The notes under the pieces: generated by a model
Databases searched by the model: none
What the model saw: only the letters and a program-made list of their open reading frames with translations
What the model was told of the DNA's origin: nothing
From: Comamonadaceae bacterium
GTDB taxonomy: Bacteria; Pseudomonadota; Gammaproteobacteria; Burkholderiales; Burkholderiaceae_C
Assembly (NCBI GenBank): GCA_021286965.1
Contig: JAJTBK010000176.1
Span: 1 to 12,294 of the forward strand
Length of the DNA stretch: 12,294 bases
Reading direction: 5' to 3'
In this document: in pieces, positions 2,692 through 12,294 of the stretch
Position numbering within the stretch: the first letter of the stretch is position 1
Layout of the letters: each line of letters begins with the position of its first letter
Made by a program: the position numbers and the translations under genes

Positions 2692-4176
2692 CTACAGCCC
2701 CAGGTCGTCGGCGAGCTGGTTCATGCGCTGGGCTACTTGGGCGTCCATGGCCATGGTGCGGCCCCATTCGCGCTGGGTTTCGCCGGGCCATTTGTTCGTC
2801 GCGTCCATGCCCATCTTGCTGCCCAGACCGGCCACGGGCGAGGCGAAGTCCAGGTAGTCGATGGGCGTGTGCTCAATCAGCATCGTGTCGCGCACCGGAT
2901 CCATGCGCGTGCTCATGGCCCAGACCACTTCTTTCCAGTCGCGCACGTCGATATCGTCATCGACCACGACGATGAACTTGGTGTACAGGAACTGGCGCAG
3001 GTGGCTCCACACGCCCATCATCACGCGCCGCGCGTGGCCGGCGTAGGCTTTTTTGATGCGCACCACGGCTAGCCGATAGCTGCAGGCCTCGGGCGGCAGG
3101 TAGAAGTCGATGATCTCGGGGAAGGCGCGCTGCAAGAGCGGCACAAACAGTTCGTTCAGCGCCAGCCCCAGCATGGCGGGCTCGTCGGGCGGTTTGCCGG
3201 TGTAGGTGCTGTGGTAGAGCGCGTCCTGGCGCTGGGTGATGCGCTCGACGGTGAACACCGGGAACTCGGCGCATTCGTTGTAGTAGCCGGTGTGGTCGCC
3301 GTACGGGCCTTCGAGCGCGTGCTGCCAGCCGCTGGGGTGATTCGCGTCGGGGTGGATGTGGCCTTCGAGCACGATCTCGGCCTGGGCCGGCACCGAGAGC
3401 GGCACGCCCCGCGCATCGGCGACCTCGGTGCGTGCGCCGCGCAGCAGGCCGGCAAACTGGTATTCGGAGAGGCTGTCGGGCACGGGCGTGACGGCGCCGA
3501 GGATGGTCGCCGGGTCGGCGCCAATCGCCACCGCCACCGGGTAGGGTTGGCCGGGGTGTTGGCGGCAGTGCTCGGCAAAATCGAGCGCCCCGCCCCGGTG
3601 CGAGAGCCAGCGCATGATGAGCTGGTTCTTGCCGATCACCTGCTGGCGGTAGATGCCCAGGTTCTGCCGCGCCTTGTGCGGCCCGCGCGTGATGGTCAGG
3701 CCCCAGGTGACCAGCGGCGCGACGTCGCCGGGCCAGCAGTGCTGGATCGGCAGGCGGCCCAGGTCCACGTCGCTGCCTTCCCACACGATTTGCTGGCAGG
3801 GCGGGCGGCGCACCTGGGATGGCGCCATGCTCCACAGCGTCTTGAGCAGGTCGCGCCGGCCCCACAGGTCCTTCATGCCGCGCGGCGGCTCGGGCTCCTT
3901 GAGCTGCGCCAGCACCTCGCCAAAGGCGCGGATCTCGGGTAAGCCCGCCACGCCCAGCGCGCGCGCCACGCGGCCGGGGGTGCCGAACAGGTTGGCCAGC
4001 ACCGGCATGGTGTGGCCGGTGGGCTTTTCAAACAGCAGCGCCGGACCGCCGGCGCGCAGCACGCGGTCGGCCAGCGCGGTCATCTCCAGGTGCGGCGAGA
4101 CCGGGGCAGTGATGCGGCGCAGCTCGCCAGCGGCTTCGAGCTGGGCCATGAAGTCGCGCAGGTCGCGGTAGTGCAT
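2692..4176 (-). CDS. ubiD: UbiD, prenyl-FMN-dependent 3-polyprenyl-4-hydroxybenzoate decarboxylase
   Basis: This 494-residue protein resembles E. coli UbiD (about 497) along its length, from the [21 protein letters not shown] start and [11 protein letters not shown] to the [13 protein letters not shown] stretch near 454-466. The cofactor region [19 protein letters not shown] (about 172-190), the adjacent SHRGG, and [11 protein letters not shown] (about 289-299) are intact. UbiD removes the carboxyl group of 3-polyprenyl-4-hydroxybenzoate in ubiquinone synthesis, using prenyl-FMN made by UbiX. The frame opens with a TTG four codons upstream, but the ATG at 4176 matches the family N-terminus and is used. 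The Shine-Dalgarno is weak. It is the last gene of the ubi block, separated from ubiX by 69 bases that hold a strong hairpin, so it may be transcribed less than ubiX or from its own promoter. Confidence 0.95.
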
Positions 4177-4186
4177 TTTCAGGATC

Positions 4187-4222
4187 AAAAATGGCGCTAG
4201 CGCTTGTAAATCAAGCGCTAGC
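4187..4222 (-). terminator. Hairpin plus T run after ubiX
   Basis: On the minus strand the perfect 11-bp stem (4222-4212 with 4206-4196) is followed after four bases by a run of five T (4191-4187). This has the shape of an intrinsic terminator or attenuator between ubiX and ubiD. The T run is short and the repeat is found at other sites, so it may instead stabilise the 3' end of the upstream mRNA. Its effect on ubiD expression is unknown. Confidence 0.45.
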
Positions 4223-4240
4223 AGCTATGAAAACAATAGC
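4187..4240. repeat. Comamonadaceae-type palindromic repeat, copy 2 (between ubiX and ubiD)
   Basis: This is the best-preserved copy in the window. GCTAGCGCTTG (4196-4206) and CAAGCGCTAGC (4212-4222) are exact reverse complements around a five-base loop. The right flank AGCTATGAAAACAATAG (4223-4239) matches copy 1 (45-61) with one difference. The element fills almost the whole gap between the ubiX stop and the ubiD start. Confidence 0.75.
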
Positions 4241-4245
4241 GAAAA

Positions 4246-4827
4246 TCAAGCATCCAGCGGCAGGCCGGGCCAGCGGGTGACGAGGTCGTGCTCGATGCCC
4301 AGCAGGTCCAGGGCGCGGGCCGCGCTGTGGTCCACGATCTCGCCCACCGTGGTCGGGCGCTGGTAGAAGGCGGGCATGGGCGGGCAGCAGATGGCGCCCA
4401 GCTCGGTGGCCGTGGCCATGTTGCGCAGGTGCACCAGGTGCAGCGGCGACTCGCGCGTGAGCAGCACCAGGCGGCGGCGCTCTTTGAGCACCACGTCGGC
4501 GGCGCGCGTCAGCAGGTTGTCGGCCAGGCCATGGGCGATGGCCGCCAGGGTGCGCATGGAACAGGGGGCAACCACCATGCCGAGCGTGGCAAACGAGCCG
4601 CTGGCGATGCTGGCGCCGACGTTGGCGATGTCGTGCACCTCGTCGGCCAGGGACTCGACCTCCGGGCGCGACAGATCCATTTCGTGGCGCAGGTTGCGCC
4701 AGCCGGCGTCGGAGACGACCAGGTGCGACTCGATGCCGCCAATTTGACGCAGCATCTGCAGCAGGCGCGCGCCATAGACCGCGCCGCTGGCGCCGGAGAT
4801 GCCGACAATGACGCGCGCACGGCTCAT
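4246..4827 (-). CDS. ubiX: UbiX, flavin prenyltransferase
   Basis: At 193 residues this has the family length. It shows GISGASG (9-15) for FMN binding, APCSM (87-91), KERRRLVLLTRESP (115-128) and MPAFY (151-155), all classic UbiX/Pad1 signatures. The enzyme joins a dimethylallyl group to reduced FMN to make prenyl-FMN, the cofactor of UbiD-type decarboxylases such as the ubiD product encoded next. Its ATG overlaps the stop of the DGC-domain gene (ATGA), and a strong Shine-Dalgarno lies inside that gene, so the two are translationally coupled. The stop is followed within a few bases by repeat copy 2. Confidence 0.96.
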   Translation of the reverse strand: MSRARVIVGISGASGAVYGARLLQMLRQIGGIESHLVVSDAGWRNLRHEMDLSRPEVESLADEVHDIANVGASIASGSFATLGMVVAPCSMRTLAAIAHGLADNLLTRAADVVLKERRRLVLLTRESPLHLVHLRNMATATELGAICCPPMPAFYQRPTTVGEIVDHSAARALDLLGIEHDLVTRWPGLPLDA

Positions 4828-5225
4828 GCCGCCTCCTGGCGCAGGGGCTTGTCGAGCAGGTCGGCCTCGACCTGGCCGAGCACCTGCGCCGCCTGTTCGG
4901 CGTCAAAGTCCTGGTGGTTGCGCTTTTTCACGCCGTATTTGTGCAGCTGGTAGTGGCGCGCGGGCGCTATGCCGTGGCGCGCCAGGCTGTGGTTGACGCA
5001 TTCGAGCGGGCAGCCGTCGAGGGCGATGATGGCGCGCCCCGATTGGGCGAGCTTGACCAGCTGCGGCACGTCGCCGCCCACGCCGGCGATGCACGACATT
5101 TCGGCCACGCCGCGCCGATCCATTTGCACCGCGACATGGTTGGCCAGCTGCGCCGCGCTGGAGCAGCCCGAGCAGGAATACACCAGCGGCAGGTGCGCGC
5201 TGGAAGTGGCAGGGTCGTCACTCAT
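4824..5225 (-). CDS. DGC-domain putative zinc-binding protein embedded in the ubi operon
   Basis: This 133-residue soluble protein resembles the DGC-domain family (putative zinc-binding proteins named for a conserved Asp-Gly-Cys). It has CSGC (18-21), C45 in SCIAGVGG, and DGCPLEC (70-76) giving C72 and C76, so five cysteines could form one or two metal or redox sites. A basic tail follows (HKYGVKKRNH, about 95-104). No signal peptide or membrane segment is seen. Its start overlaps the ubiT stop and its stop overlaps the ubiX start, each by four bases (ATGA), with a strong Shine-Dalgarno, so it is made together with both. The family has no established role that I know of. The setting suggests a part in O2-independent ubiquinone synthesis, perhaps metal or electron delivery to UbiU/UbiV; that is inference only. 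Confidence 0.85.
   Translation of the reverse strand: MSDDPATSSAHLPLVYSCSGCSSAAQLANHVAVQMDRRGVAEMSCIAGVGGDVPQLVKLAQSGRAIIALDGCPLECVNHSLARHGIAPARHYQLHKYGVKKRNHQDFDAEQAAQVLGQVEADLLDKPLRQEAA
4832..4837 (-). promoter_or_regulatory. Ribosome binding site of ubiX
   Basis: AGGAGG on the minus strand lies four bases before the ubiX ATG (4827), inside the last codons of the DGC-domain gene. It fixes the ubiX start and supports re-initiation at the ATGA overlap. Confidence 0.8.
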
Positions 5226-5746
5226 GGCCGGCCTCCCAACAGGGCTGAGAGCGAGGGCAGCGGCGGCAGCTGGCGCGCCAGGTGCGGTGCGCGGCGCGCG
5301 AGCACGGCGCGCGGGCTCCAGTGCGCCGGGTCGAACACCGGCAGCTCGAGCGCATCGAGGGCGTTTTTCACCACCAGGCCGAGCTCGGTGTCGCCTTCCA
5401 TCACCAGGCGGCGGTTGAAGAACAGGGTGTCGGGGTCCTGGCGGCGCTGCGCCAGCAGCATGAAGTCCTGCGCGTTGGCGCTGATGGCCAGGTCGGGCTC
5501 GGCCTGCGCGCTGCTGGGCACGAAGCGCTGGCCGTTCCAGGAGAAGTCAAACGCCAGGCGCGCATCGCGCACGCGAATGGCCAGGTGCTTGCCTTGCAGC
5601 AGGTCTGTGACGTCCTGCGGCAGCTGGCGCGCGAGCGCAAAGTTGATCGCTGTGACCAGCAGCACGGAGCCCGGGTAGGCGGGCAGGCGCGCCAGCACGG
5701 CGCCCACGGGCGCCGGCAGGGTGAAGGGGGCGGGAGAGGCCATCAT
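5222..5746 (-). CDS. ubiT: UbiT, SCP2-domain lipid-binding protein of the O2-independent ubiquinone pathway
   Basis: This 174-residue protein has a sterol-carrier-protein-2 (SCP2) domain over roughly residues 30-135, including DLLQGKHLAIRV, DARLAFDFSWNG, EPDLAISANAQDFMLLA and RRLVMEGDTELGLVVKN. Length and pattern match E. coli UbiT (YhbT). UbiT binds isoprenoid precursors and replaces UbiJ when ubiquinone is made without oxygen, working with UbiU and UbiV. Direct adjacency to ubiV and ubiU favours UbiT over UbiJ or another SCP2 protein. The frame is open far upstream across ubiV, but the tandem ATG at 5746/5743 is preceded by a good Shine-Dalgarno and follows the ubiV stop by 20 bases. The 3' end overlaps the DGC gene by four bases. 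Confidence 0.92.
   Translation of the reverse strand: MMASPAPFTLPAPVGAVLARLPAYPGSVLLVTAINFALARQLPQDVTDLLQGKHLAIRVRDARLAFDFSWNGQRFVPSSAQAEPDLAISANAQDFMLLAQRRQDPDTLFFNRRLVMEGDTELGLVVKNALDALELPVFDPAHWSPRAVLARRAPHLARQLPPLPSLSALLGGRP
5232..5237 (-). promoter_or_regulatory. Ribosome binding site of the DGC-domain gene
   Basis: GGGAGG on the minus strand lies six bases before the ATG at 5225 and inside the 3' end of ubiT. It supports the chosen start and coupled translation of the two genes. Confidence 0.75.
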
Positions 5747-5752
5747 GGGCAA

Positions 5753-5757
5753 TCCTT
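5753..5757 (-). promoter_or_regulatory. Ribosome binding site of ubiT
   Basis: AAGGA on the minus strand lies six bases before the ATG at 5746. It selects this start over the much longer open frame that runs back through ubiV. Confidence 0.7.
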
Positions 5758-5766
5758 CAAAAAACG

Positions 5767-6669
5767 TCAGGGCAAGGCCGGTTCTACCAGATCGAGCCCG
5801 GGTTTTCCATGCCAATACCCGTTGCAGGGCTGCTCGGGCATGAAGGGGCGCAACGCCGCCAGCTGCGCCGGTGCGTCCTGCGGCGCGCGGCGCGCGGCGT
5901 CGAAGGCGGCAATGATTTTGTCCATGTGCTGCGACTGCGGCGACAGGCGCAGCACGTCCACGCCCAGGGCCTGCAGCTGCGGCAGGTCGGCGATCAGGTT
6001 GTGCACCTTGGCCGATTGCGTCTGGATGCCGTTGATGACCAGGAAGGATTCGCTCTCGCGCGTGGCCAGCAGCTGGCCATCGGGATGCTCGATGCAGCGA
6101 AAACCGCAATCGTCCTTCGGCAGGTTGTAGTGGCGCGCCGTAAAGCAGCGCGCCGAGAACGCCAGCGGCATCCGGCCATAGGCAAAGACTTCGGTCTGCA
6201 GGCCGGCGGGCTTGTGCGCCAGGATGGCGGCGAGGTCGCTCTGGCGCATCTCCAGCGGCATGACCCAGCGCGTGGCGCCCAGGCTGGCCATCCAGGCCAG
6301 GGTGTCGGCGTTGAAGACGTTGAGCTGCGCCCCGGCGACGAAGGCACGCTGGCCCGCCAGGCTGTGCACCGCGCCCATGTCGCCGGCCTCGACCAGGAAC
6401 TCGGTGTGGCGCGTGATCTTGTGCATGTCGGCCACGTCGCTGGTCGATTCGAGCAGCACCATGGTGGACATCACCGGCTCCTTGCCGGCGTCCTGCAACA
6501 TGCGGGCGATGTCCAGCCAATCGCTCTGGCGCAGCTCGTGGCGGCGCGAGCACACGGCCTCGCCGAGGTAGACGATGTCCACGGCGCTCTCGGCCATGGC
6601 TTGGTAGAACGCAAAAACGGTGTCGCGCGGCCAGTAATACTGCAGCGGGCCCAGGGCTAGTTTGATCAT
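5767..6669 (-). CDS. ubiV: UbiV, Fe-S subunit of the O2-independent ubiquinone hydroxylase (U32 family)
   Basis: This 300-residue U32-family protein matches UbiV (YhbV). It has a barrel-like start (KLALGPLQYYWPRD, DIVYLGEAVCSRR) and cysteines C40, C175, C188 and C192, close to the four that bind a [4Fe-4S] cluster in E. coli UbiV (39, 176, 193, 197). The segment with the last three reads RCFTARHYNLPKDDCGFRC. UbiV pairs with UbiU and, with UbiT, carries out ring hydroxylation without oxygen; prephenate has been reported as the hydroxyl donor. Automatic annotation often calls it a collagenase-like peptidase, which is misleading. It lies 21 bases after ubiU and 20 before ubiT, so the three form an operon. 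C282 in PCNGYWHGKPG is an extra cysteine. Confidence 0.95.
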   Translation of the reverse strand: MIKLALGPLQYYWPRDTVFAFYQAMAESAVDIVYLGEAVCSRRHELRQSDWLDIARMLQDAGKEPVMSTMVLLESTSDVADMHKITRHTEFLVEAGDMGAVHSLAGQRAFVAGAQLNVFNADTLAWMASLGATRWVMPLEMRQSDLAAILAHKPAGLQTEVFAYGRMPLAFSARCFTARHYNLPKDDCGFRCIEHPDGQLLATRESESFLVINGIQTQSAKVHNLIADLPQLQALGVDVLRLSPQSQHMDKIIAAFDAARRAPQDAPAQLAALRPFMPEQPCNGYWHGKPGLDLVEPALP

Positions 6670-6690
6670 GGTGTTCTCGTGTTCTTGTTG

Positions 6691-7776
6691 TTATTTCCAG
6701 GGCCGGTGGTAGGCCCCCAGGGTGTGCTGCTGGCCTTCGGCCACCTGGTCGAGGCTGGCCATCCAGGCCGTCTTGGGCGCGTACAAATGGCCCTGCGCCA
6801 TGCAGTGGTCAATCGCCTCGCGCCACACCTTGGTGACCTGCGCGACGTAGGCCGGGCTCCTCTGGCGGCCTTCGATCTTGAAGGCGCGCACGCCCATCTT
6901 CACCAGCTGCGGCAAGAGCTCCAGGGTGTTGAGGCTGGTGGGCTCTTCGAGGGCGTAGTAGTTGTGCTCGTCGCCGACGTCAAAGCGCCCCTTGCACAGC
7001 GTCGGGTAGCCGGCGTTCTCGCCCTGGCCGTACTTGTCGATGAGCACGCCGTTCAGGCGCGATTCGACGCCGCTCGGCGTCTCCTTCCAGCGCACGAACT
7101 TGGCCGGCGAGCACACGCCGTGCGTGTTCGGCGACTCGCCCGTGGCGTACGACGAGAGCGCGCAGCGCCCCTCGACCATCACGCACAGGCTGCCAAAGCC
7201 AAAGACTTCGATCTCGACCGGCGTGCGCTGTGCCACCTGCTTGACCTGCTCGAGCGAGAGCACGCGCGGCAGCACCGCGCGCTGGATGTTGAACTGCTGG
7301 TGGTACAGGTTGATGGCGTCGTGGTTCGTGGCCGAACCCTGCACCGACAGGTGCAGGCGCAGGTCGGGGTGCTTGTCGCAGGCGTAGCGCATCAACCCCG
7401 GGTCGGCCAGGATGATGGCGTCAATGCCCCAGGCGCTGGCGCGGTCCACGGCAGCGCGCCAGGGCGCGGGGTTGCTCGCCTGCGGGTAGGTGTTGAGCGC
7501 CAACAGCACCTTGCGGCCGCGCTGGTGGGCGTAGGCGATGCCTTCCTGGATGGCTTTTTCGTCAAAATTGAGGCCGGCGAAGTTGCGCGCGTTGGTCGCA
7601 TCGCGCAGGCCCAGGTAGACGCAGTCAGCGCCGCCATCGATGGCGTTTTTCAGCGCCGGCAGGCTGCCGGCAGGGCACACGAGTTCGGGGGGCTGGGGCG
7701 CAGCGCCGGGTGCGGGGGCGCTGGCGCTGGAGGCACCGGCCAGCGGGTGCTCCAGGGTGGTTGCGGTGTCGGTCAC
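6691..7776 (-). CDS. ubiU: UbiU, Fe-S subunit of the O2-independent ubiquinone hydroxylase (U32 family)
   Basis: This 361-residue protein closely resembles E. coli UbiU (YhbU): CPAGSLPALK, GLRDATNARNFAGLNF, LPRVLSLEQVKQ, GENAGYPTLCKGR, EEPTSLNTLELLP and FKIEGRQRSPAYV. Cysteines C198, C205, C222 and C261 have spacings of 7, 17 and 39, identical to the E. coli [4Fe-4S] ligands (169, 176, 193, 232). It forms the hydroxylase with UbiV. The start is taken as GTG at 7776 because GAGGAAA sits seven bases upstream; the open frame continues to an ATG at 7875 without family resemblance. Relative to E. coli there is a 29-residue Ala/Pro/Ser-rich N-terminal extension. It is the first gene of the ubi operon, preceded by an FNR-like site. 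Confidence 0.95.
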   Translation of the reverse strand: MTDTATTLEHPLAGASSASAPAPGAAPQPPELVCPAGSLPALKNAIDGGADCVYLGLRDATNARNFAGLNFDEKAIQEGIAYAHQRGRKVLLALNTYPQASNPAPWRAAVDRASAWGIDAIILADPGLMRYACDKHPDLRLHLSVQGSATNHDAINLYHQQFNIQRAVLPRVLSLEQVKQVAQRTPVEIEVFGFGSLCVMVEGRCALSSYATGESPNTHGVCSPAKFVRWKETPSGVESRLNGVLIDKYGQGENAGYPTLCKGRFDVGDEHNYYALEEPTSLNTLELLPQLVKMGVRAFKIEGRQRSPAYVAQVTKVWREAIDHCMAQGHLYAPKTAWMASLDQVAEGQQHTLGAYHRPWK

Positions 7777-11446: not shown

Positions 11447-12294
11447 CTATTGCAGCGACATCGGGAACGTACCGGGGTCGTCAAGCGTGGTCGCGGGGCT
11501 GCTGTAGGCGCGCGTCTGGGTCACGACCTCGACCCGGTTGCGGCCGTTTTGCTTGGCCTGGTACATGGCCCGGTCGGCGGCGTCGATGAGCATATCCCAG
11601 CTGTCGGTATCGGCCGGGTAGCCGCCGTATACCCCTATGCTGATCGTGACCGCGATCGCCTGCCCCTGCCAGTGGCAGACGGAGTCCTGCACGCTCTGGC
11701 GCAGCTGCTCGGCCAGCACCAGGGCGCCGGCGAGGTCGGTGTCGGGCAGCAGCACCAGAAATTCTTCACCGCCGTAGCGGCCGACCATGTCCTGGGTGCG
11801 CACGCGGTCGCACAGCACGTTGACGACGTGGCGCAGCACCTGGTCGCCGCCGAGATGGCCGTAGGCGTCGTTGACGCGCTTGAAGTGGTCGATGTCGAGC
11901 ACCATGAGCGCAATCGGCTGGCGCGTGCGCTTGGCGCGCGCTACGTCGCGGTCCAGGGCAAAGATGATGAACCGCCGGTTGGCGACCCCGGTCAGGGCGT
12001 CGGTGGTGGCCAGGCGGCGGTTGCTGGCATCGAGCTTGTCGCGGCTCATGAAAACGAAACCGAGCGAAGCCATGAGCATGGCGGCAAAAGAGGCGACGAA
12101 GGTCAGGCTCAGCAGCGTTGCGCCGGACAGCCCCTGGGCCGCCGGCAGCACCCCAAGCAGCGCGCGCAACAGCAGCACCGCGATCATGGCGCGCAACGCC
12201 CAGCGCAGCAGGCGCAGGCCACGCCCCTTCAGGCGCGGCACGCTGCGGCGCAGCGCCCACAGCATGAGCCCCATCTGCAGGCACAAACACAGGC
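11447..12294 (-). CDS. GGDEF diguanylate cyclase, membrane-anchored (5' end beyond window)
   Basis: At least 280 residues, open to the window edge, so the N-terminus is missing. Two hydrophobic stretches (about 24-47 and 54-80, counted from the TTG at 12286) look like the last helices of a membrane sensor domain. A short linker then leads to TTDALTGVANRR. The GGDEF domain has metal-binding DIDHFKRVND (131-140) and an active GGEEF (172-176). RTQD (163-166), exactly five residues before it, is an inhibitory I-site, so product feedback is expected. The enzyme should make cyclic di-GMP from two GTP at the inner face of the membrane. No EAL domain follows. The signal sensed cannot be judged from the visible part. 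Confidence 0.92.
   Translation of the reverse strand, partial: LCLCLQMGLMLWALRRSVPRLKGRGLRLLRWALRAMIAVLLLRALLGVLPAAQGLSGATLLSLTFVASFAAMLMASLGFVFMSRDKLDASNRRLATTDALTGVANRRFIIFALDRDVARAKRTRQPIALMVLDIDHFKRVNDAYGHLGGDQVLRHVVNVLCDRVRTQDMVGRYGGEEFLVLLPDTDLAGALVLAEQLRQSVQDSVCHWQGQAIAVTISIGVYGGYPADTDSWDMLIDAADRAMYQAKQNGRNRVEVVTQTRAYSSPATTLDDPGTFPMSLQ

What the first reader, a model, noticed from the sequence alone, without database searches (positions are those of the whole stretch)
2692..7776. Compact ubiU-ubiV-ubiT-DGC-ubiX-ubiD cluster for ubiquinone synthesis without oxygen
The three O2-independent genes (ubiU, ubiV, ubiT) are joined to ubiX and ubiD in one direction with gaps of 21, 20, -4, -4 and 69 bases. 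In E. coli ubiX, ubiD and ubiUVT are at separate loci. Here the decarboxylation step, its cofactor supply and the anaerobic hydroxylases are packaged together, suggesting a self-contained anaerobic module. Cysteine patterns of UbiU and UbiV are intact, so the module looks functional. The gene identities are seen; joint regulation is inferred.
Basis: partly seen in the sequence, partly recalled or inferred. Interest (0 to 1): 0.72.

Follow-up and report, generated by a model that had tools for sequence, protein, structure and literature searches.

The report
Anaerobic ubiquinone operon with own decarboxylase
This six-gene cluster makes the respiratory carrier ubiquinone without oxygen; in related bacteria its decarboxylase gene is kept or lost together with the oxygen-independent genes, which suggests that a different, still unidentified enzyme does that step when oxygen is present.

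Summary
The gene order and every gap are as reported. The fourth gene is a PF08859 "DGC-domain" protein, not a diguanylate cyclase.

The arrangement is widespread in Comamonadaceae: of the best 80 named DGC loci, 69 have ubiU/V/T beside DGC and 52 also have ubiX and ubiD. It differs from the usual ubiTUV locus and resembles the published ubiXDTUV set of Hyphomicrobium.

Distribution is the strongest evidence. In the window's family UbiD is in 17 of 17 genomes with UbiU and 7 of 33 without. Those 7 carry a different UbiD lineage; cluster-linked UbiD is one clade (100/99), not seen without UbiU in this sample. One complete genome keeps a scar, the start of ubiU beside the end of ubiD. UbiX/UbiD here therefore look dedicated to the anaerobic route, implying an unidentified UbiD-independent aerobic decarboxylase.

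An FNR-like box heads the cluster (55 of 65 loci, about 1 expected by shuffling). A terminator-like hairpin between ubiX and ubiD argues against one uniform transcript. The DGC protein tracks UbiU and nitrate/NO genes; its function is unknown. There are no expression or biochemical data.

The parts
6691..7776 (-). ubiU, O2-independent hydroxylase subunit (U32 family, Fe-S cysteines present)
   Evidence: NF047963 562 bits, cut-off 440; cysteines 198/205/222/261
5767..6669 (-). ubiV, partner of UbiU
   Evidence: NF047965 404 bits, cut-off 275; cysteines 40/175/188/192
5222..5746 (-). ubiT, SCP2 lipid-binding accessory factor
   Evidence: NF047962 147 bits, cut-off 46.9; PF02036
4824..5225 (-). 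DGC-domain protein (PF08859), unknown function; Cys 18, 21, 45, 72, 76
   Evidence: PF08859 120 bits; alignments; AlphaFold2 model pLDDT 91
4246..4827 (-). ubiX, flavin prenyltransferase (makes the UbiD cofactor)
   Evidence: NF004685 277 bits, TIGR00421 234 bits; one match in the genome
2692..4176 (-). ubiD, 3-polyprenyl-4-hydroxybenzoate decarboxylase
   Evidence: NF008175 821 bits, cut-off 788; one match in the genome
7849..7862 (-). FNR/Dnr-type box TTGACCCACGTCAT, 86 bases before the ubiU start; a TAAGGT at 7826-7821 lies where the -10 of a class II FNR promoter would be
   Evidence: 9 of 10 specified bases of TTGAYNNNNRTCAA; 55 of 65 sequences (window included) have 9 or 10, 1.1 expected; sequence; the promoter spacing is inference
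4195..4223 (-). terminator-like hairpin between ubiX and ubiD (12-pair stem, then TTTTT)
   Evidence: 7 terminator-like sites in the region, 3.4 expected; this has the longest stem; folding z -4.29, 1 of 200 shuffles as stable; same pattern in this gap in 4 of 52 named loci that have ubiX and ubiD

Best explanation
This is the anaerobic ubiquinone operon of a Comamonadaceae bacterium. An oxygen-sensing FNR-type regulator most likely switches it on from the box ahead of ubiU. UbiU-UbiV hydroxylate the ring without O2 and UbiT carries the lipid intermediates. UbiX makes prenyl-FMN for UbiD, which removes the carboxyl group of prenylated 4-hydroxybenzoate. In this lineage UbiX/UbiD work mainly or only with the anaerobic hydroxylases; with oxygen present another enzyme must take over the decarboxylation, for instance a decarboxylative flavin monooxygenase like Rhodobacter UbiN. 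The DGC protein is a cysteine-rich accessory of nitrate/NO-respiring cells that in these bacteria usually sits with ubiUVT; its precise role is open. Shown here: gene identities, conserved order, joint loss of UbiD with UbiU, the box at the head. Inferred: regulation, anaerobic restriction of UbiX/UbiD, the aerobic substitute.
For: Family models. Conserved arrangement: 69 of 80 named DGC loci with ubiU/V/T, 52 with X and D as well. UbiD in 17/17 UbiU+ and 7/33 UbiU- family members (Fisher 3.5e-8 without phylogenetic correction). Cluster-linked UbiD is one clade (100/99); the 7 UbiU- UbiDs and 3 unlinked ones form another (100/99), so linked-type UbiD is in 14 UbiU+ and 0 of 33 UbiU- genomes. 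Same-genus contrasts: G445 +/+ against G078 -/-, G387 +/+ against G246 -/-. Scar in G006: UbiU residues 10-43 next to UbiD 414-494, behind three of the window's flanking genes; G006 is sister to the linked core in another gene's tree (100/100). FNR-type box in 55 of 65 sequences. O2-dependent ubiquinone hydroxylase (TIGR01988 299 bits, cut-off 224.65) in the same genome. Published parallels: H. denitrificans ubiXDTUV, whose sole ubiD/ubiX are hardly transcribed in two regulator mutants even under full oxygen (PMC12423496, passage); R. capsulatus delta-ubiD-X grows aerobically like wild type (PMC10626278, passages).
Against: In E. coli UbiD and UbiX serve both routes; their knockouts make a limited amount of ubiquinone, and only with air (PMC6747719, passage). 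Terminator-like hairpin between ubiX and ubiD, and no promoter-like site before ubiD. The cluster is incomplete in some relatives: ubiX elsewhere in G030, no DGC in G364, no ubiD in the 10 kb after DGC in Ottowia L070. With the strict consensus TTGATNNNNATCAA the window has no site of 8 or more matches. UbiX was not searched in UbiU- genomes, and the UbiU-/UbiD- genomes were not checked for the rest of the ubiquinone pathway. Three of them (G005, G006, G028) still have narG, so absence of the cluster does not simply mean an aerobic life. The losses are not all independent; the G006 scar and two same-genus differences (direction not determined) suggest several events, not counted on a species tree.
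Confidence: 0.68

Rival explanations
1. UbiX and UbiD are ordinary housekeeping enzymes used in both air and anoxia. They merely sit behind ubiUVT and keep their own or read-through promoter; UbiU-/UbiD- relatives use some other decarboxylase that the cluster-bearing species lack.
For: One UbiD and one UbiX in the window's genome and, with one exception, in the relatives that have them: G017 has a second UbiX beside a distant UbiD-like gene. E. coli uses them in both routes (PMC6747719, passage). The hairpin between ubiX and ubiD could uncouple ubiD.
Against: Linked-type UbiD was not found without UbiU (14 against 0 of 33), including same-genus pairs and one scar spanning ubiU to ubiD. A housekeeping gene should survive the loss of ubiUVT.
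Confidence: 0.25
2. The linkage is mere shared ancestry or hitch-hiking in one clade, without functional meaning.
For: The 14 linked UbiDs form a single clade, so the linkage may have arisen once in this family.
Against: The order persists across many genera; ubiD also lies beside ubiU-ubiV in family f35 (G090, G149) and in H. denitrificans (PMC12423496); UbiD is absent with UbiU.
Confidence: 0.07
3. The DGC protein is a dedicated new component of the UbiU-UbiV hydroxylase (electron carrier or Fe-S/metal partner), not a general nitrate/NO protein.
For: DGC in 13 of 21 UbiU+ and 0 of 39 UbiU- relatives; among NarG+ relatives 12 of 14 UbiU+ and 0 of 10 UbiU-; phylum sample 20 of 120 against 4 of 277, one of the 4 a degenerate match; five conserved cysteines in a confident alpha/beta model.
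Against: 8 of 21 UbiU+ relatives lack it, as do 100 of 120 UbiU+ genomes in the phylum sample; G364 keeps ubiUVT-X-D without it. 11 of 80 named DGC loci show no ubiUVT in the DNA held (some contigs short), and several DGC genes lie beside nnrS/norB, nrdD, norR/ytfE, narI/moeA/moaA or mogA (my reading of translations, not family searches).
Confidence: 0.25

Closest known systems
ubiXDTUV cluster of Hyphomicrobium denitrificans (Hden_0564-0568; PMC12423496)
   Same: Same five ubi genes clustered, sole ubiD and ubiX, tied to denitrification; the authors propose other proteins for the aerobic decarboxylation (passage).
   Different: Named in another order, in another class (Alphaproteobacteria), affected by sHdrR/SoxR; the terms DGC and zinc-binding do not occur in that paper's main text.
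ubiTUV locus of Pseudomonadota (PMC11707229) and E. coli ubiUV/ubiT (PMC10470549)
   Same: ubiV follows ubiU, ubiT nearby, FNR-type box upstream of ubiU (passages).
GWC2-55-46 and Magnetococcia ubi clusters (PMC13386864, PMC11707229)
   Same: O2-independent genes packed with other ubi genes (passages).
   Different: Loci ubiCADG and ubiVKBET in GWC2-55-46, ubiT between ubiB and ubiE in Magnetococcia; other lineages.
Rhodobacter capsulatus UbiN system (PMC10626278)
   Same: UbiD-X needed anaerobically but dispensable in air (passages).
   Different: No UbiN orthologue was identified here; a salicylate/3-hydroxybenzoate hydroxylase-like monooxygenase in the same genome (contig C345) is only a lead.

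Membership tests
UbiU-UbiV O2-independent hydroxylase | Equivalog models above cut-off | tested here: met
   562 and 404 bits
UbiU-UbiV O2-independent hydroxylase | [4Fe-4S] cysteine motifs CX6CX16CX38C and CXnCX12CX3C | tested here: met
   Positions against PMC6747719 (passages)
UbiU-UbiV O2-independent hydroxylase | Ubiquinone made without O2 in vivo | not testable with these tools
   needs a mutant and quinone assay
UbiX/UbiD decarboxylase of ubiquinone synthesis | Family models above cut-off | tested here: met
   UbiX TIGR00421 234 bits, UbiD NF008175 821 bits
UbiX/UbiD decarboxylase of ubiquinone synthesis | No second copy elsewhere in the genome | tested here: met
   own assembly only 87% complete; same-genus G001, G002 and G003 (100% complete) also show one each
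FNR-controlled ubiTUV locus | FNR-type box upstream of ubiU | tested here: met
   window 9 of 10; 55 of 65 sequences with a degenerate consensus of mine; the strict consensus finds nothing of 8 or more in the window
FNR-controlled ubiTUV locus | Anaerobic induction by FNR | not testable with these tools
   no expression data
PF08859 DGC domain | Pfam gathering score and conserved cysteines | tested here: met
   120 bits, cut-off 27; Cys 18, 45, 72, 76 invariant and Cys 21 in 90% or more of 55 rows
Diguanylate cyclase (other meaning of DGC) | GGDEF domain | tested here: not met
   only PF08859 matches 4824-5225, even at E up to 10
UbiN-type aerobic decarboxylative hydroxylase | Orthologue in the genome | not tested
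   only a related monooxygenase seen on contig C345

The most novel reading that the evidence does not exclude
In Comamonadaceae the decarboxylation of the ubiquinone head group is split by oxygen: UbiX/UbiD belong only to the FNR-controlled anaerobic operon, and aerobic ubiquinone is made with an unidentified UbiD-independent enzyme, so members that lost ubiUVT could discard UbiD with it.
Probability: 0.58. Interest if true: 0.66.

Novelty: new variant of a known kind. Interest (0 to 1): 0.52.

Why it matters
In the E. coli scheme UbiD and UbiX are shared by both ubiquinone routes. Their absence together with ubiUVT across one large family suggests an aerobic decarboxylase that is still unknown there. 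It offers same-genus comparisons in which to look for it, and points to the DGC protein as a testable companion of the O2-independent pathway.

Tried and rejected
Rejected first thought: because UbiD/UbiX are single copies I took them for housekeeping genes; the search of UbiU- relatives spoke against it. Rejected: DGC = diguanylate cyclase. Rejected: DGC as a strict ubiquinone-only protein, since it also sits in NO and nitrate clusters.

Upstream of ubiX, boxes of 9 or more of 10 occur in 5 of 57 loci (0.1 expected) and of 8 or more in 23 of 57 (6.5 expected). This stretch mostly overlaps the DGC coding sequence, whose conservation could cause it; I did not test that, so a second regulatory site there is not excluded. 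Upstream of ubiT 2 of 67 and of ubiD 0 of 54 reach 9.

In print: searches listed no paper whose title or shown abstract describes a ubiUVT-DGC-ubiXD cluster in Betaproteobacteria; only open-licence PMC texts were searched, of the papers opened I saw passages, and no supplement was read.
Full report
What is there. Five match curated models for UbiU, UbiV, UbiT, UbiX and UbiD above their cut-offs. The fourth in order is a PF08859 DGC-domain protein. The Fe-S cysteines of UbiU and UbiV fit the published motifs (PMC6747719, passages). Flanking genes are ordinary: DinG, an acylphosphatase, an alpha/beta hydrolase, an AbrB-family protein, an M20-type peptidase and a GGDEF protein (the acylphosphatase and the peptidase score below the curated cut-offs and are named from the best matches).

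Conservation. Of these 80, 69 have ubiU/V/T on the same strand with ubiT at most 152 bases from DGC (67 show both ubiU and ubiV; L066 and L069 begin at ubiT at a contig end). 52 also have ubiX and ubiD, 5 ubiX only, 2 ubiD only and 10 neither, some of them cut by contig ends; 11 have no ubiUVT in the DNA held. The full set is found in records named Paenacidovorax, Acidovorax, Comamonas, Polaromonas, Rhodoferax, Hydrogenophaga, Simplicispira, Diaphorobacter and others. The Herbaspirillum, Massilia, Rugamonas and Trinickia records have ubiUVT-DGC without ubiX/ubiD in the 10 kb held on either side.

Co-loss. UbiU above cut-off is in 13 family-f1 genomes and 4 more, 17 in all, and absent from 33. 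UbiD (NF008175, 740 bits or more) is in all 17 and in 7 of the 33. Two of the UbiU- genomes are under 90% complete (65% and 89%), as is the window's own (87%); without these three the counts are 16 of 16 and 7 of 31 (Fisher 1.6e-7). The maximum-likelihood tree of 40 UbiDs puts the 14 cluster-linked ones in one clade (100/99), and the 7 UbiU- ones together with the 3 unlinked UbiU+ ones (G010, G031, G035) in another (100/99). Thus the linked lineage is in 14 UbiU+ genomes and in 0 of 33 UbiU- ones. Two genera contain both states (g58: G445 and G078; g60: G387 and G246). G006, a one-contig assembly, has three of the window's flanking genes and then a scar with UbiU residues 10-43 followed by UbiD 414-494, plus a second broken UbiD end. 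A tree of another U32 protein, with 10 linked, 4 of the 26 UbiU-/UbiD-, 3 other-lineage and 3 outside genomes, places G006 as sister to the linked core (100/100). A branch (99/98) holds the 3 other-lineage genomes with 2 outside ones; G018, G027 and G028 fall on the other side with the linked genomes, through open forks, and the third outside row (G054) is a long branch of unsure place. P values ignore shared ancestry. Three UbiU-/UbiD- genomes (G005, G006, G028) have narG.

Regulation. Within 250 bases of ubiU, 55 of 65 sequences carry 9 or 10 of 10 bases of TTGAYNNNNRTCAA, against a mean of 1.1 in shuffles; upstream of ubiD 0 of 54 do, of ubiT 2 of 67, of ubiX 5 of 57. I chose this consensus after a first look with a stricter one, under which the window shows no site of 8 or more. 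The same type of box is reported upstream of ubiU across Pseudomonadota (PMC11707229, passages) and shown to work in E. coli (PMC10470549, passages). Between ubiX and ubiD lies a 12-pair hairpin followed by five T; the same pattern is in this gap in 4 of 52 named loci, while two Hydrogenophaga loci (L117, L122) have a 2-base gap instead. So joint control from the head is likely but ubiD output may be tuned separately.

DGC protein. Cysteines 18, 45, 72 and 76 are invariant and Cys 21 is in 90% or more of 55 sequences. The model is confident (pLDDT 91), with the cysteines just after strands of an alpha/beta sheet; that they meet at one site is inference. No significant fold match. It is in 13 of 21 UbiU+ and 0 of 39 UbiU- relatives. 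With NarG considered (58 relatives; G011 and G041 left out), it is in 12 of 14 NarG+ UbiU+ genomes, 0 of 10 NarG+ UbiU-, 1 of 7 NarG- UbiU+ and 0 of 27 with neither. In 397 phylum genomes it is in 20 of 120 UbiU+ and 4 of 277 UbiU-. In 12 of the 16 genomes outside f1 that hold both, DGC lies within 12 kb of ubiU, in several different arrangements; in the other 4 the two are on different contigs. Elsewhere it neighbours nitrate, NO and molybdenum-cofactor genes as I read the translations.

Literature. Papers on aerobic Comamonadaceae that hold the terms ubiquinone-8 and respiratory quinone were seen as a search listing with abstract starts only; that the family's quinone is ubiquinone-8 is otherwise recalled. 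UbiD-independent aerobic decarboxylation is shown for R. capsulatus (UbiN) and proposed for H. denitrificans; an alternative decarboxylase, UbiZ, is predicted for Moraxellaceae (passages). I found no report of it for Comamonadaceae in searches.

Verdict. It is a new variant of a known kind, not a new system.

Noticed in passing
L075, L085, L110, L122 and others, between ubiV and ubiT: In 25 of 67 named loci ubiV and ubiT are more than 500 bases apart; in the two loci whose intervening gene I read (L171, L177) it looks like a haemolysin-III/PAQR membrane protein.
   Followed up: partly
window 4223-4195: Palindromic element AGCGCTTG...CAAGCGCT between ubiX and ubiD; 11 hits of the pattern in 7 of 80 named loci, 4 of them in the same gap.
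   Followed up: partly
L178 and L182 (G090, G149): In another family of the same class (f35) ubiD lies directly beside ubiU-ubiV with a DGC gene nearby: an apparently independent linkage of the decarboxylase.
   Followed up: partly
L061:200-1384 (own genome, contig C345): Salicylate/3-hydroxybenzoate hydroxylase-like flavin monooxygenase next to what reads as an aconitase gene; a possible UbiN-like aerobic decarboxylative hydroxylase.
   Followed up: partly
G057: Genome of the same order (99% complete) with UbiU but no UbiD or UbiX match at the thresholds used.
   Followed up: no
L052, L134, L136, L139: DGC genes away from ubiUVT sit beside genes that read as nnrS, NsrR, qNOR, NrdD/NrdG, NorR or YtfE.
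   Followed up: partly
window 11447-12292: True GGDEF diguanylate cyclase, cut by the window end; unrelated to the DGC-domain gene.
   Followed up: no
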